Position numbers and translations under genes: made by a program | The notes under the pieces: generated by a model | What the model saw: only the letters and a program-made list of their open reading frames with translations | Databases searched by the model: none | What the model was told of the DNA's origin: nothing | In this document: positions 9,345 through 12,993 of the stretch, one piece after another | How positions within the stretch are numbered: the first letter of the stretch is position 1 | Layout of the letters: each line of letters starts with the position of its first letter | NCBI GenBank assembly: GCA_013286315.1 | Contig: JABDFX010000007.1 | Coordinates: 1 to 64,000 of the forward strand | From: Bacteroidota bacterium | GTDB taxonomy: Bacteria; Bacteroidota; Bacteroidia; Chitinophagales; Chitinophagaceae | Length of the DNA stretch: 64,000 bases | Reading direction: 5' to 3'

Positions 9345-9856
9345 GAATGATTATTAATTGTTGCCTTAAAGGGCGACAAAACTAATGGTTTTTATGCTTT
9401 TTTCAATTTTCTGTAATTCTGCGTTTGGACATTTCCATTATCCGTTTCGGCATCTCCAATTATTTGTTTGGGAATTTTCATTTATCAGTATCGGCATCTT
9501 CCATTATCCATTTCGACACCTCTACTACCTGTTTCGGCATCTTCCATTATCCATTTCGACACCTCTACTACCCGTTTCGGCATCTCCTATTATCAGTTTC
9601 TGTATCTCCAAATATCCGTATGGGCATCTTCCATTATCCGTTCCGAGCCGCAAATTCAAAATCCGGCAGATTCACGCTTAAGAATTTAAGTTTAACCAAT
9701 ATTTACAAAAGGACTAACAGGATCGATGGAACTTTAAACGTTTATTTTCAGGCAGATATTGGTGATGTGTTTTGAGAGCCGGTCGATATTGCTAAACCCG
9801 GTAAATGGAATTATGAGCATCCCGCATTTTGCATTATTTTTATAAAAATATCCGGT
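9345..9856. repeat. 21-22 bp tandem array in the efp/thioredoxin divergent gap
   Basis: About ten degenerate units fill 9424-9651, with consensus close to TTTCGGCATCTTCCATTATC. Two 43-bp double units (from 9493 and 9536) are almost identical. The period equals two helical turns. The open frames inside are repeat translations only. The remaining 200 nt (9652-9856) hold the upstream region of the next gene, with no further element recognised. Confidence 0.85.
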
Positions 9857-10372
9857 ATGAAGTGTGTGCTGACCGTTATCCTGGGACTTTTATTTTTGTC
9901 ATCGGCGCATGCACAGGTGCCAAATAACGTACCTGAACCGCCCTATCTGAAAAATCCTGGCATTCCTCCTTTCCGTCTTCTGGAAGTAGACAGCCTCCAT
10001 TATTTAACTAAAGATGATCTCAAGAAAAATCATAGGGTCCTGGTTATTTTTTTCAGCCCGGAATGTGAACATTGCAAACATCAGATGCGGGATATTCTGG
10101 CAGATGCCAATAAATTCAAAGACATCGAAATCGTGATGGCAACTTTCCAGCCTTTTGACGAAATGAAATCTTTCTATACATACTTCCGGATCGCTGATCA
10201 TTCAAATATCCTGATGGGCAGGGATGATAAATATATGCTCCCCCCATATTACCGGATGCAAAGTCTGCCCTGCCTGGCCCTTTATGATAAAAAAGGTCAG
10301 TTCATCACAAAATTTGAAGGCAACCAGAAGGTTGACACACTTTTACTCGCTTTTCAGGGAAAGGAAAAATAA
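9857..10372 (+). CDS. Exported thioredoxin-fold protein (TlpA-like)
   Basis: 171 residues with a clear signal peptide ending AHAQ near residue 20. A thioredoxin fold follows, with VLVIFFSPECEHC carrying a CxxC redox pair at Cys70 and Cys73. The later LPCLALYDKKG has the cis-Pro strand region; here a Pro-Cys follows SL. The protein is probably a periplasmic thiol oxidoreductase or redox-dependent reductase. The substrate is unknown. It is a lone gene upstream of mdh. Confidence 0.8.
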   Translation: MKCVLTVILGLLFLSSAHAQVPNNVPEPPYLKNPGIPPFRLLEVDSLHYLTKDDLKKNHRVLVIFFSPECEHCKHQMRDILADANKFKDIEIVMATFQPFDEMKSFYTYFRIADHSNILMGRDDKYMLPPYYRMQSLPCLALYDKKGQFITKFEGNQKVDTLLLAFQGKEK

Positions 10373-10443
10373 TTGTCGATTGTTATTTGTCAATTGTTAA
10401 ATATCAATTCCGTTGACAATTAACAATTAACAATTAACAATTA
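10373..10443. repeat. Family B TTGACAATTAAC palindrome upstream of mdh
   Basis: The left side has TTGTCGATTG, TTGTCAATTG and TTAAATATC. The right side has TTGACAATTAACAATTAACA. These are inverted, short-period copies of the words found before ispH. The array runs straight into the candidate -7 box of mdh. Confidence 0.8.
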
Positions 10444-10449
10444 TCTTCG
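10413..10449 (+). promoter_or_regulatory. Candidate mdh promoter
   Basis: TATCTTCG at 10442-10449 is one base off TAnnTTTG, and TTGAC at 10413 lies about 26 bp upstream. Both elements are formed by or abut the family B repeat. Confidence 0.4.
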
Positions 10450-10470
10450 CCTTCACTTAAAAAATTTCCG

Positions 10471-11406
10471 ATGAAAGTAACAGTCGTAGGTGCAGGTGCC
10501 GTAGGCGCAACCTGTGCAGATAATATTGCCCGCAAAGAACTCGCCGAAGAACTTGTTTTACTCGACATCAGAGAAGGATTCGCAGAAGGAAAGGCGCAGG
10601 ATATTATGCAATCTGCCACGTTGCTGGGGTTCGATACACGTGTAAGCGGAAGTACCAACGACTATACCAAAACGGCCGGCAGTGATGTCGTGGTAATTAC
10701 CTCCGGCTTACCCAGGAAGCCCGGTATGACACGTGAAGAACTGATAGGCACAAATGCGGGCATCGTAAAGACGGTGACCGATAATATTCTAAAGTATTCA
10801 CCGGAGGCCCTCCTCATCATCATTAGCAACCCGATGGACACAATGACCTATCTGACCTTGAAAGAATCAGGTTTACCCAGGGAAAGGATTATCGGCATGG
10901 GCGGCACGCTGGATAGTTCAAGATTTAAATATCAGCTCAGTCAGCATCTCGGCTGCAGCCCGGCAGACCTGAATGCCCTTGTGATCGGTGGCCATGGTGA
11001 CACAACTATGATTCCATTGATCCGCTTTGCAACCTGGAATAGTGTACCTGTTACTAAATTATTGTCCGAAGAAAAACAAAAACAAATTGTCGCCGATACG
11101 ATGGTTGGTGGTGCCACGCTTACCAAACTGATAGGAACTTCCGCCTGGTATGCTCCGGGTGCGGCCGGCGCAGCATTGGTGGAAACGATTGTAAGGGACG
11201 AAAAGAAATTATTCACCTGTTGCGTGTCCCTGGAAGGCGAATACGGACAAAGAGATATCTGCCTGGGCGTTCCGGTAACCATTGGCAAGAAAGGCTGGGA
11301 GAAAATCATTCCCTTCGAACTCAATGCCGATGAAAAGGCCCTTTTTGCAAAAAGCGCCGATGCCGTGCGAAATATGAATGACGTGTTGTCAACTTTAAAA
11401 GCTTAA
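10471..11406 (+). CDS. mdh: Malate dehydrogenase
   Basis: 311 residues of the LDH-like NAD-dependent malate dehydrogenase type. The features are the N-terminal GAGAVGATCA nucleotide loop, Asp in LLDIREG for NAD, and LPRKPGMTREEL, whose Arg on the mobile loop selects malate over lactate. NPMDTMTYL and catalytic His in GGHGDTTMIPL are also present. It acts in the TCA cycle in the cytoplasm. It is a single gene followed by a long palindrome at 11427-11544. Confidence 0.95.
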   Translation: MKVTVVGAGAVGATCADNIARKELAEELVLLDIREGFAEGKAQDIMQSATLLGFDTRVSGSTNDYTKTAGSDVVVITSGLPRKPGMTREELIGTNAGIVKTVTDNILKYSPEALLIIISNPMDTMTYLTLKESGLPRERIIGMGGTLDSSRFKYQLSQHLGCSPADLNALVIGGHGDTTMIPLIRFATWNSVPVTKLLSEEKQKQIVADTMVGGATLTKLIGTSAWYAPGAAGAALVETIVRDEKKLFTCCVSLEGEYGQRDICLGVPVTIGKKGWEKIIPFELNADEKALFAKSADAVRNMNDVLSTLKA

Positions 11407-11426
11407 ATAAGAGCGGACAGCATGAC

Positions 11427-11544
11427 TTTCACAATTTGGGATTGTGGAATTGTGGGAAATGTGAAAATGAAATTTAAAATTTAATTTGAAATTTCATTTT
11501 CACTCCCTCATATCTGCATAGTTCCACAATTCCAAATTGTGAAA
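11427..11544. repeat. Nested AT-rich palindrome after mdh
   Basis: The outer arms TTTCACAATTTGG (11427-11439) and CCAAATTGTGAAA (11532-11544) are perfect inverted copies. So are the inner arms GTGAAAATGAAATTT (11461-11475) and AAATTTCATTTTCAC (11489-11503). CACAATT/AATTGTG words recur several times. It may act as an mRNA 3'-end structure. Confidence 0.8.
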
Positions 11545-11690
11545 ATCGGGCTATTTAGTCCGGTTAGGCTCTTGACAATCTCAACCCTCCGTATTACCTT
11601 TAGGCTTTCTTTCGAATCTTCCCTACTGTACATCCTCGTATCCAGCGAAAAGTCGCATAGAATCCAACGTACTTACAACCCGTTATTCGT

Positions 11691-12368
11691 ATGCGAGGAT
11701 TTCTACTTTCGACCGTATTCGTTTTTTTCATTTCTGGGCTGCTTGCACAGACAGACAGTTCTGCACCTATCGCGCGGAATGATACAGATGCATTGGCGCA
11801 GCAGGCAGAAAATACTGTACAACCCGCACAAAGTGAAGCTGCTGCGAAACAGGCACAGATTGATTGGGCATTTCGTGGACATGATCCAAAAAAAGACGCC
11901 AATCTGAATCCCTTCATAAACAAGAAAATCAACCCCGATAGTAACCGGTTCATCAATCCTTCTTCGAATTATAATATGAATCCCCTGAAGGAAATTTCAC
12001 TGAACCCGACACAAAACGCTTCCATCAACCCGATGATCAATCTGCAGTTGAATCCGCAGTCGAATGACGTGCTGAATCCGGTGATCATGAAGGGCCTTCG
12101 CCCTACGACCGAAACCTGGAAAGGATTGTTTCTGTTCAACGATTCAAACCAGCTCTTTGGATATATTTCGATTGCTACCCAATATGTGATGTTGTCCTTT
12201 GACAATAGCGGAACCTGGAATGGCTATTATGTTAAGGCCGGTGAAAATATGTATAATTACTTTACATTGTTCGGCGTATGGACCGGTATGTTCCTTTGTT
12301 ATGACAACCAGAGCGGTTACAATCTGTTCGACAAAAATGGCAAATGGACCCACATATACATAAAATAA
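11691..12368 (+). CDS. Secreted Asn-Pro octapeptide-repeat protein, copy 1
   Basis: 225 residues, family not recognised. A signal peptide ends near LLAQ (residue 20). A Gln/Ala-rich linker (21-60) leads to eight consecutive eight-residue repeats of the form hydrophobic-Asn-Pro-x-x-Asn-x-x (about 68-135), for example LNPFINKK, INPDSNRF and INPSSNYN. The last 85 residues form a separate domain beginning ETWKGLFLF, with repeated GxW/TW motifs (GTWNGYYVKAG, GVWTGMFLCYD, GKWTHIYIK). The tandem paralog lies 58 nt downstream. The regular eight-residue period suggests a solenoid or extended surface stalk. Function is unknown. Confidence 0.7.
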   Translation: MRGFLLSTVFVFFISGLLAQTDSSAPIARNDTDALAQQAENTVQPAQSEAAAKQAQIDWAFRGHDPKKDANLNPFINKKINPDSNRFINPSSNYNMNPLKEISLNPTQNASINPMINLQLNPQSNDVLNPVIMKGLRPTTETWKGLFLFNDSNQLFGYISIATQYVMLSFDNSGTWNGYYVKAGENMYNYFTLFGVWTGMFLCYDNQSGYNLFDKNGKWTHIYIK

Positions 12369-12426
12369 AAACCCGTATAAAATCTACATTTTAAATTTAG
12401 AAACCCGTAACCCAAACACTAATAGA

Positions 12427-12993
12427 ATGAAAAAAATTTTACTCTTATCTCTCGCGAGTCTGTTGATGATCCCTGTGGGATTTTCCCAAAGCCTCGAAAA
12501 CCGACACGACCCAAAGATTGATTTTAATCTGAGCCCCACGTTTAACAGCACATTGAATCCGGAAAAGAATTCGAATATCAATCCGAAATATAATTGGAAC
12601 ATCAATCCGATGCACAATAACGATGTGAACCCCGAGTTCAACAGTACCATCAATCCCCTCAATCATTTTGAACTGAATCCGGATATAAACAAAACGTTGA
12701 ACCCGATGTACCACAATGAATATCATCCGAAGAATCCTGCCTGGAAAGGGCTTTATATCTTTAATAAGACGGATGACCTGATTGGATATGTTTCCATTGC
12801 CACCCAGCAACTCATGTTAACTTTTGACATACAAGGCGACTGGACCGGGTTTTATGTAAGAGCATCGCCGGGCATTTTTAATCATTTTGATGTGAAAGGT
12901 ACATGGGACGGAAATTATTTATGTTTTGACTCCGTAATCGGTTATAATATTTTTGACAAAAGCGGTACCTGGACGGGTCAGCATATCAAATAA
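12427..12993 (+). CDS. Secreted Asn-Pro octapeptide-repeat protein, copy 2
   Basis: 188 residues, paralog of the preceding gene. The signal peptide ends at GFSQ (residue 21). The same octads follow without the Gln/Ala linker: LNPEKNSN, INPKYNWN, INPMHNND, VNPEFNST and so on (about 35-100). The C-terminal domain is better conserved than the repeats and shares WKGL-IFN, GY-SIATQ, LTFD and a closing GTWTG. It overlaps the 3' end of the convergent glycosyltransferase gene by 8 nt. Family not recognised; probably cell-surface or periplasmic. Confidence 0.75.
   Translation: MKKILLLSLASLLMIPVGFSQSLENRHDPKIDFNLSPTFNSTLNPEKNSNINPKYNWNINPMHNNDVNPEFNSTINPLNHFELNPDINKTLNPMYHNEYHPKNPAWKGLYIFNKTDDLIGYVSIATQQLMLTFDIQGDWTGFYVRASPGIFNHFDVKGTWDGNYLCFDSVIGYNIFDKSGTWTGQHIK

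What the first reader, a model, noticed from the sequence alone, without database searches (positions are those of the whole stretch)
11691..12993. Tandem secreted proteins made of Asn-Pro octads
Both proteins have signal peptides, eight or nine perfect-period repeats of hydrophobic-N-P-x-x-N-x-x, and a shared 85-residue C-terminal domain with repeated G-x-W motifs. I do not recognise a known family. Eight-residue spacing with fixed Asn and Pro suggests a solenoid or rod exposing Asn ladders, useful for binding ions, glycans or ice-like surfaces.
Basis: partly seen in the sequence, partly recalled or inferred. Interest (0 to 1): 0.7.

Follow-up and report, generated by a model that had tools for sequence, protein, structure and literature searches.

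The report
Exported rod-and-flower protein pair
Two neighbouring genes in a Bacteroidota bacterium encode what look like exported proteins made of a strictly regular ten-unit rod and a small four-fold hairpin head; the libraries searched do not name this combination, and its job is unknown.

Summary
Both ORFs (11691-12368, 12427-12993) have a signal peptide by eye, ten prolines spaced exactly eight apart (20000 shuffles reach five at most) and a shared C-terminal domain of about 83 residues. The ten prolines are kept in 49 of 49 aligned members. Relatives occur in 40 of 394 genomes of the family (a few weak); the 40 loci found in one genome per species carry Bacteroidota titles, the named genera being Chitinophagaceae, mostly next to malate dehydrogenase (36 of 41 loci). 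AlphaFold2 gives a regular rod, not disorder, and an eight-strand, four-repeat head. The head resembles the 4-fold beta-flower, but below Pfam's cut-off (18.9 of 25 bits); an open OspA-like sheet is not excluded. The octad model had no PDB match at E <= 10. One distant full-length relative without signal peptide lies on an Enterobacter plasmid. No evidence was found for ion, glycan or ice binding. My reading: an exported rod-plus-head envelope protein, ligand unknown.

The parts
11691..12368 (+). upstream paralogue, 225 aa: signal peptide, extra linker, ten octads, C-terminal hairpin domain
11691..11750 (+). signal peptide of upstream protein (by eye)
11751..11861 (+). Gln/Ala-rich linker absent from the other 24 rows of alignment A2
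11880..12113 (+). ten-octad block of upstream protein (Pro at residues 66, 74 ... 138)
12117..12365 (+). C-terminal four-hairpin (beta-flower-like) domain of upstream protein
12427..12993 (+). downstream paralogue, 188 aa: signal peptide, ten octads, C-terminal hairpin domain
12427..12486 (+). signal peptide of downstream protein (by eye)
12505..12735 (+). ten-octad block of downstream protein (Pro at residues 29, 37 ... 101)
12742..12990 (+). C-terminal four-hairpin (beta-flower-like) domain of downstream protein; eight strands in the AlphaFold2 model
10471..11406 (+). lactate/malate dehydrogenase family gene, the usual upstream neighbour (not part of the pair)

Best explanation
Each gene makes a Sec/signal-peptidase-I exported, non-lipidated envelope protein of two rigid parts. 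Part one is a rod of ten octads, [hydrophobic]-N-P-x-x-N-x-x, in which the aliphatic residue before N-P packs inside and the Asn residues cap short helical turns and tie successive turns together. Part two is a closed eight-strand, four-fold hairpin head of the beta-flower kind with conserved aromatic residues on the repeat (four Phe, three Trp). The rod is a fixed-length pedestal and the head is the binding part, most likely for a lipid or another hydrophobic ligand, by analogy with Tubby-like domains, to which the authors of the beta-flower paper compare that fold. Shown here: an export signal (by eye), a constant number of octads in 49 rows, conservation, purifying selection, a confident predicted rod, eight predicted strands with a four-fold repeat, a tandem duplication older than the Puia/Pinibacter split on the tree. 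Inferred: what packs inside, that the head closes into a barrel, what it binds, and that the rod is a spacer. I put the architecture at about 0.8; the ligand is the weak step.
For: AlphaFold2 of the downstream protein on 49 rows: mean pLDDT 90.0, pTM 0.82, eight strands between 109 and 187. Ten prolines in 49 of 49 rows; the P-2 position is I/L/V/M/F in at least 41 of 49 rows for octads 2 to 10. Head: self-comparison peaks at offsets 64, 43 and 21; four-repeat score 1.51 against a maximum of 0.41 among up to 1000 random quadruples. Beta-flower likeness: PF21784 matches 4 of 49 members at E <= 1, best E 0.0021, each time over residues 109-164 or nearly so, profile positions 3-48 of 116; comparison of the head profile with five PF21784-positive sequences gives P 1.3e-4, probability 53.6%, over 48 columns. 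Gln at the end of the signal peptide in 49 of 49 by eye fits the Bacteroidetes Q-rule for signal-peptidase-I substrates (PMC5837995, PMC10653852: search listing and starts of abstracts). Ka/Ks, computable in 6 of 10 pairs for each part, is 0.01-0.12 in octads and 0.00-0.07 in the head. Beta-flower description: PMC10584680, passages read.
Against: None of the 49 members reaches Pfam's cut-off for PF21784 (best 18.9 of 25 bits); DUF1416 matches more members (5 of 49, best E 0.0051). The head of the plasmid relative against the same five PF21784 sequences gives only 1.4% probability, P 0.036. The tip motif [DNEQ]xxG is present in only 6, 37, 12 and 39 of 48 full rows at the four tips. No PDB structure matched at E <= 0.001; Tubby-like 1zxu was rank 22, E 0.1, probability 0.47, TM 0.24-0.27, rmsd 9.3. 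The family profile matches engineered OspA sheets by sequence about as well (E 0.00099). No coordinates were available, so closure of the barrel was not seen. No experiment or neighbour gene points to a lipid ligand.
Confidence: 0.38

Rival explanations
1. One reading: the rod itself is the working surface, exposing Asn ladders that bind ions, glycans or ice, and the C-terminal domain only anchors or caps it.
For: Asn at P+3 is kept in 36-49 of 49 rows for octads 2 to 8, and N-P in 39-49 of 49 for octads 3 to 9. A regular rod is predicted with confidence.
Against: Asn is equally explained as turn capping and internal hydrogen bonding (inference). The number of octads is constant in the 49 rows and they are under strong purifying selection. 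The ice-nucleation solenoid has outward Thr/Tyr arrays on 16-residue repeats (PMC9418140, start of abstract), not met here. The Enterobacter relative lacks a signal peptide and has Thr at most P+3 positions (by eye).
Confidence: 0.15
2. The C-terminal domain is not a closed beta-flower but an open single-layer hairpin sheet (OspA-like) or another hairpin repeat such as choline-binding repeats, perhaps binding cell-wall sugars.
For: hmmsearch of the family profile against PDB sequences hits OspA entries, best over positions 111-187 at E 0.00099; one member of ten shows Choline_bind_2 at E 0.067. The strand list alone fits an open meander too.
Against: Foldseek aligns the model to OspA only at TM (query) 0.14-0.15 and rmsd 10-13, though its Tubby-like match is also poor. 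All four repeats are present in the 48 full rows, and by eye the domain starts and ends with half a hairpin in the same register as PF21784 sequences, as expected for a closed ring.
Confidence: 0.2
3. The octad region is disordered or a loose extended chain and AlphaFold2 over-regularises the repeat.
For: Repeats can give over-confident solenoids (general knowledge). The octads alone have pTM 0.57, and residues 71-82 of that fragment drop to 68 and 55; no PDB match at E <= 10. Three octads per turn has only weak sequence support (P 0.03 on variable positions of all ten octads, 0.12 without the end octads, 0.45 and 0.40 on all positions).
Against: The octads are not copies of each other: at the variable positions mean similarity is negative at all six octad offsets tested. 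Yet each octad keeps its proline in 49 of 49 rows, no octad is gained or lost in those rows, and non-synonymous change is about as rare as in the head.
Confidence: 0.12
4. The family is a defence or immunity part, as the plasmid relative lies between retron/PtuA genes and an AbiV gene.
For: Neighbours of the Enterobacter gene: retron St85-type reverse transcriptase, PtuA, AbiV, a transposase.
Against: One full-length record among 72,556 plasmids. None of the other four AbiV-bearing plasmid loci holds an octad gene within the stretch read (up to 3 kb each side). Chitinophagaceae copies are exported by eye and mostly sit beside malate dehydrogenase. No PADLOC match at E up to 10.
Confidence: 0.05

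Closest known systems
[quoted passage not shown]
   Same: Eight strands in four hairpins with F/Y-[DN]-x-x-G-type tips and, by eye, the same starting register (sequences); some beta-flowers carry a lipoprotein signal (PMC10584680 passages).
   Different: Repeat is 21-22 residues here against about 16-18 in the short PF21784 sequence L103 (my count); score below the Pfam cut-off; none of the five full-length PF21784 matches fetched carries N-P octads.
Tubby C-terminal / LOR domains (for example 1zxu)
   Same: Same Pfam clan as beta-flowers; weak Foldseek match, probability 0.47.
   Different: Twelve strands round a helix in Tubby; eight strands and no helix in the head here; match not significant.
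Ice-nucleation protein solenoid
   Different: 16-residue repeats with Thr/Tyr arrays (PMC9418140, start of abstract) against N-P octads.
HeliScrew4 (9zem), named like a designed protein
   Same: Eight-residue repeat with hydrophobic-S/T-P; best PDB sequence hit of the family profile, E 1.6e-9.
   Different: No relation by descent is claimed; no paper found under that name; its structure was not examined here.
OspA single-layer beta-sheet
   Same: Hairpin repeats with F-N-x-x-G tips; profile hit E 0.00099.
   Different: Open sheet (recalled); structural overlay of the model poor, TM 0.14-0.15.

Membership tests
PF21784 4-fold beta-flower | Reaches the curated cut-off of 25 bits | tested here: not met
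   4 of 49 members match at E <= 1, best E 0.0021, which is 18.9 bits (the four score 18.9, 18.6, 15.9, 12.2); own genome 0 matches at E <= 10
PF21784 4-fold beta-flower | Eight strands in four hairpins | tested here: met
   Predicted strands 109-112, 118-126, 129-134, 139-147, 150-155, 160-167, 173-176, 182-187
PF21784 4-fold beta-flower | Four-fold internal repeat | tested here: met
   Offsets 64, 43, 21 are the three best; Phe at 112/133/154/176, Leu at 118 and Trp at 139/160/182
PF21784 4-fold beta-flower | Semiconserved [DNEQ]xxG at hairpin tips | tested here: inconclusive
   6, 37, 12, 39 of 48 full rows at tips 1 to 4
PF21784 4-fold beta-flower | Closed shallow barrel with hydrophobic channel | not testable with these tools
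Tubby C-terminal-like (CL0395) | Significant structural match to a solved Tubby-like domain | tested here: inconclusive
   1zxu rank 22, E 0.1, probability 0.47, TM 0.24-0.27
Ice-nucleation-type solenoid | 16-residue repeats with outward Thr/Tyr arrays | tested here: not met
   Octad consensus [ILV]-N-P-x-x-N-x-x; no Pfam or NCBIfam family for the window proteins
Known solenoid repeat families in Pfam (pentapeptide, hexapeptide and others) | Pfam match over the repeat region | tested here: not met
   None of the 13 families listed for 49 members at E <= 1 is a solenoid repeat
Bacterial lipoprotein | Lipobox Cys directly after the signal peptide | tested here: not met
   Gln ends the signal peptide in 49 of 49 by eye; two rows (L073, L075) have a Cys just before it, without a lipobox
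OspA-like open hairpin sheet | Single-layer open sheet | tested here: inconclusive
   Sequence profile hit E 0.00099 but structural TM 0.14-0.15

The most novel reading that the evidence does not exclude
The ten-octad block is a solenoid class of its own, about three octads (24 residues) per turn with short helical turns and Asn-Pro corners, without a counterpart in the PDB, used in an exported form in Chitinophagaceae and as an intracellular form in mobile DNA of a gammaproteobacterium, in both as a rigid carrier of a four-fold hairpin head.
Probability: 0.3. Interest if true: 0.62.

Novelty: new variant of a known kind. Interest (0 to 1): 0.45.

Why it matters
If the model is right, this is an unlisted two-domain family with a very regular natural rod made from a simple octad that could serve as a design scaffold, joined to a head near the beta-flower fold, whose function the describing paper leaves open. 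Being small, apparently soluble and not lipidated, it would be a convenient protein for asking what such heads bind.

Tried and rejected
Family libraries: Pfam, NCBIfam and PADLOC give no family for the window proteins at E up to 10; PHROGs gives only unknown-function hits at 0.27 and 0.29, and 0.0016 for the plasmid protein. The remaining hits of single members (DUF1416 in 5 of 49, PRS2_N in 3, ten others in 1 each) and the NCBIfam porin hit (1 of 49, E 0.0018) were treated as chance. The PDB sequence search with the single protein gave only four designed beta-trefoil-type entries, best E 0.027.

Weak hits set aside after reading: G345, G075, G099, G425, G154, G004, G124 and viral contig L062: low-complexity repeats or unrelated proteins by eye. 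L004 (G345) still scores 15.4 bits, E 0.001, with the head profile. G421 (31 residues) and G635 (frames with stops) were not counted as real copies. Three Erwinia records and one Chimaeribacter record match 24-32% of the plasmid protein, and Monoglobus, Alteromonas and Rahnella records match the window protein at E 0.02-0.7; I took them for repeat matches and read only the Monoglobus and Alteromonas places.

Nothing in phages, in viral contigs with single proteins or in E. coli genomes by DNA with the plasmid gene. The link to AbiV was tested on four other AbiV loci and not seen.

The best match in the viral structure library is an unnamed 91-residue phage protein, E 2.5e-3, probability 1.00, rmsd 2.8 over 59 columns; I could not say what it is.

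Literature: searches for beta-flower papers and for Asn-Pro octads or octapeptide solenoids listed no paper on this family; this covers only the held library and those terms. PMC7618865 (passages) mentions beta-flowers and 'extruded repeats' in general.

Full report
What is in the sequence. Each has ten prolines at exact spacing eight; 20000 shuffles of each protein never exceed five. In the downstream protein seven of the ten are N-P, in the upstream one eight. The octad consensus is [ILV]-N-P-x-x-N-x-x. The upstream protein has an extra Gln/Ala-rich stretch of about 37 residues between signal peptide and octads that the other 24 rows of alignment A2 lack.

Where it occurs. In the window's genome (58.8% complete, 202 contigs) only these two copies were found. 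Of 58 near relatives (own genome included) 17 match; one, G425, is by eye an unrelated M56-like protein, which leaves 16 of the 33 same-genus genomes and none of the 25 others. In 11 of the 16 there are two adjacent copies. In the wider family 40 of 394 genomes match, in 13 of 101 genera, a few of them fragmentary. In a sample of the phylum 5 of 395 match, of which only the own genome and one same-family genome (G300) are full length. With the head alone 1 of 296 phylum genomes rings, the own one; with the octads alone 4 of 296, the other three being short frames. A scan of one genome per species (84,980 species) gave 44 pattern matches, 40 confirmed; the titles name Puia, Pinibacter, Flavihumibacter, Flavipsychrobacter, Terrimonas or Chitinophagaceae, or unplaced Bacteroidetes, Bacteroidota or Sphingobacteriales. 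That scan used a single ten-residue pattern, so it does not show absence elsewhere.

A distant relative. tblastn found one plasmid of Enterobacter hormaechei (p24845-Ct2) with a 175-residue protein, 27.8% identical over 89% of the query, E 8e-12, the only one of 72,556 records covering at least 80%. By eye it has eleven octads, ten with Pro, mostly of the form SINPKLTS, the same kind of C-terminal domain, and no signal peptide. The C-terminal part alone is related beyond composition: 34.7 bits against a best of 10.8 among 2000 shuffles, profile comparison P about 1e-6. It was not found in phages or viral contigs.

Context and history. In 36 of 41 loci (window plus the 40) malate dehydrogenase is immediately upstream; 39 of 41 hold a detectable octad ORF and 12 hold two. 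A thioredoxin-like gene is present in 33 and a glycosyltransferase 9 gene in 30 of 41 (family names for the window's genes). L070 and L071 have octad pairs with other neighbours. The link is not universal: of the seven genomes that match and were also searched for malate dehydrogenase, five have the two genes side by side (G000, G300, G454, G470, G513) and two do not (G467 on another contig, G522 far away on one contig). Of the 30 malate dehydrogenase loci fetched, only the own one and G300 have octads within the 1.5 kb flanks; most of these 30 genomes lack the family. A tree of 50 proteins puts the 13 upstream copies of Puia-type and Pinibacter genomes together (100/98) and the 13 downstream copies together (81/66), which points to one duplication before those genera split; the second support is modest and the tool warns of long branches that meet. 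Ka/Ks could be computed in 6 of 10 pairs for each part, 0.01-0.12 in the octads and 0.00-0.07 in the head; in the others synonymous sites are saturated, and an eleventh pair had unequal length.

Structure. AlphaFold2 on 49 rows gives mean pLDDT 90.0 and pTM 0.82. Ten-residue block means are 79 for residues 21-30 and 92-96 for residues 31-110. Three-residue helical turns lie just before the x-P step at residues 25, 33, 49, 57, 73, 81 and 97; every third turn is missing, which suggests three octads per turn. Similarity among variable positions is highest at three octads but a permutation test is weak (P 0.03, 0.12, 0.45 and 0.40 in four versions). The octad block alone still folds at mean 85.4, pTM 0.57, with a weak end, and its Foldseek search of the PDB returned nothing at E <= 10. 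Confidence in a predicted repeat is not proof of structure.

The head. Residues 106-188 form eight predicted strands in four repeats of 21-22 residues with Phe at 112, 133, 154 and 176, Leu at 118 and Trp at 139, 160 and 182. Scanning 49 members against Pfam brought up PF21784, '4-fold beta flower', in 4 of them; the match covers about residues 109-164 and stays below the cut-off. Five PF21784 members fetched for comparison show, by eye, the same order of strand, tip and strand; the profile comparison gives P 1.3e-4 at 53.6% probability, but the plasmid protein's head gives only 1.4%. The beta-flower paper (PMC10584680, passages read) describes four-, five- and six-fold versions, aromatic residues lining the barrel, lipoprotein signals in some, and a likeness to Tubby domains, which bind phosphoinositides or act as scramblases. 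Against this, the family profile also hits OspA, DUF1416 matches five members weakly, and no solved structure matches significantly. By the rule on failed tests I do not file the domain in PF21784; it looks and probably works like a beta-flower.

Export. The 49 members show a Sec-type signal peptide by eye, ending at a Gln and without a lipobox Cys. This fits the Q-rule for signal-peptidase-I substrates in Bacteroidetes (PMC5837995 and PMC10653852, search listing and starts of abstracts). No type IX C-terminal signal is among the NCBIfam hits. The likely place is therefore the periplasm or the medium; I could not test which.

Verdict. I found no description of the family in the libraries and papers searched, but its head lies near a known fold, hence 'new variant of a known kind'.

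Noticed in passing
window 11424-11547: A 124-base palindrome between malate dehydrogenase and the octad pair (single-strand DNA fold -39.1 kcal/mol, z -10.9) with partial copies on contigs C160, C4, C28, C10 and C26 of the same genome: perhaps a small repeat element or a two-way terminator.
   Followed up: partly
window 9415-9646: Degenerate tandem array of 22- and 43-base units (10.5 copies of 22) upstream of the thioredoxin-like gene; the ORFs over it look spurious.
   Followed up: no
L022:148-2853 and L006:1315-2928: Two other Bacteroidota proteins (L022 M56-like by eye) with their own eight-residue runs of the type LSLQPEIN or INAEVNPV; perhaps an independent octad rod.
   Followed up: partly
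L034:4913-4960: Just upstream of the Enterobacter octad gene a GTTTAAC ... GCGTTAGGC stretch that folds as hairpins (z -2.5, 4 of 200 shuffles as good) and resembles an integron attC site (motif recalled, not from a call); the gene may travel as a cassette with the AbiV gene behind it.
   Followed up: partly
window 9857-11406: Thioredoxin-like and malate dehydrogenase genes recur together upstream of the octad genes (33 and 37 of 41 loci).
   Followed up: yes
L104, L110: One PF21784 protein (L104) and one sub-threshold hit (L110) carry proline-rich three-residue runs (PPIPPI, QPVQPI) near the matched stretch.
   Followed up: no
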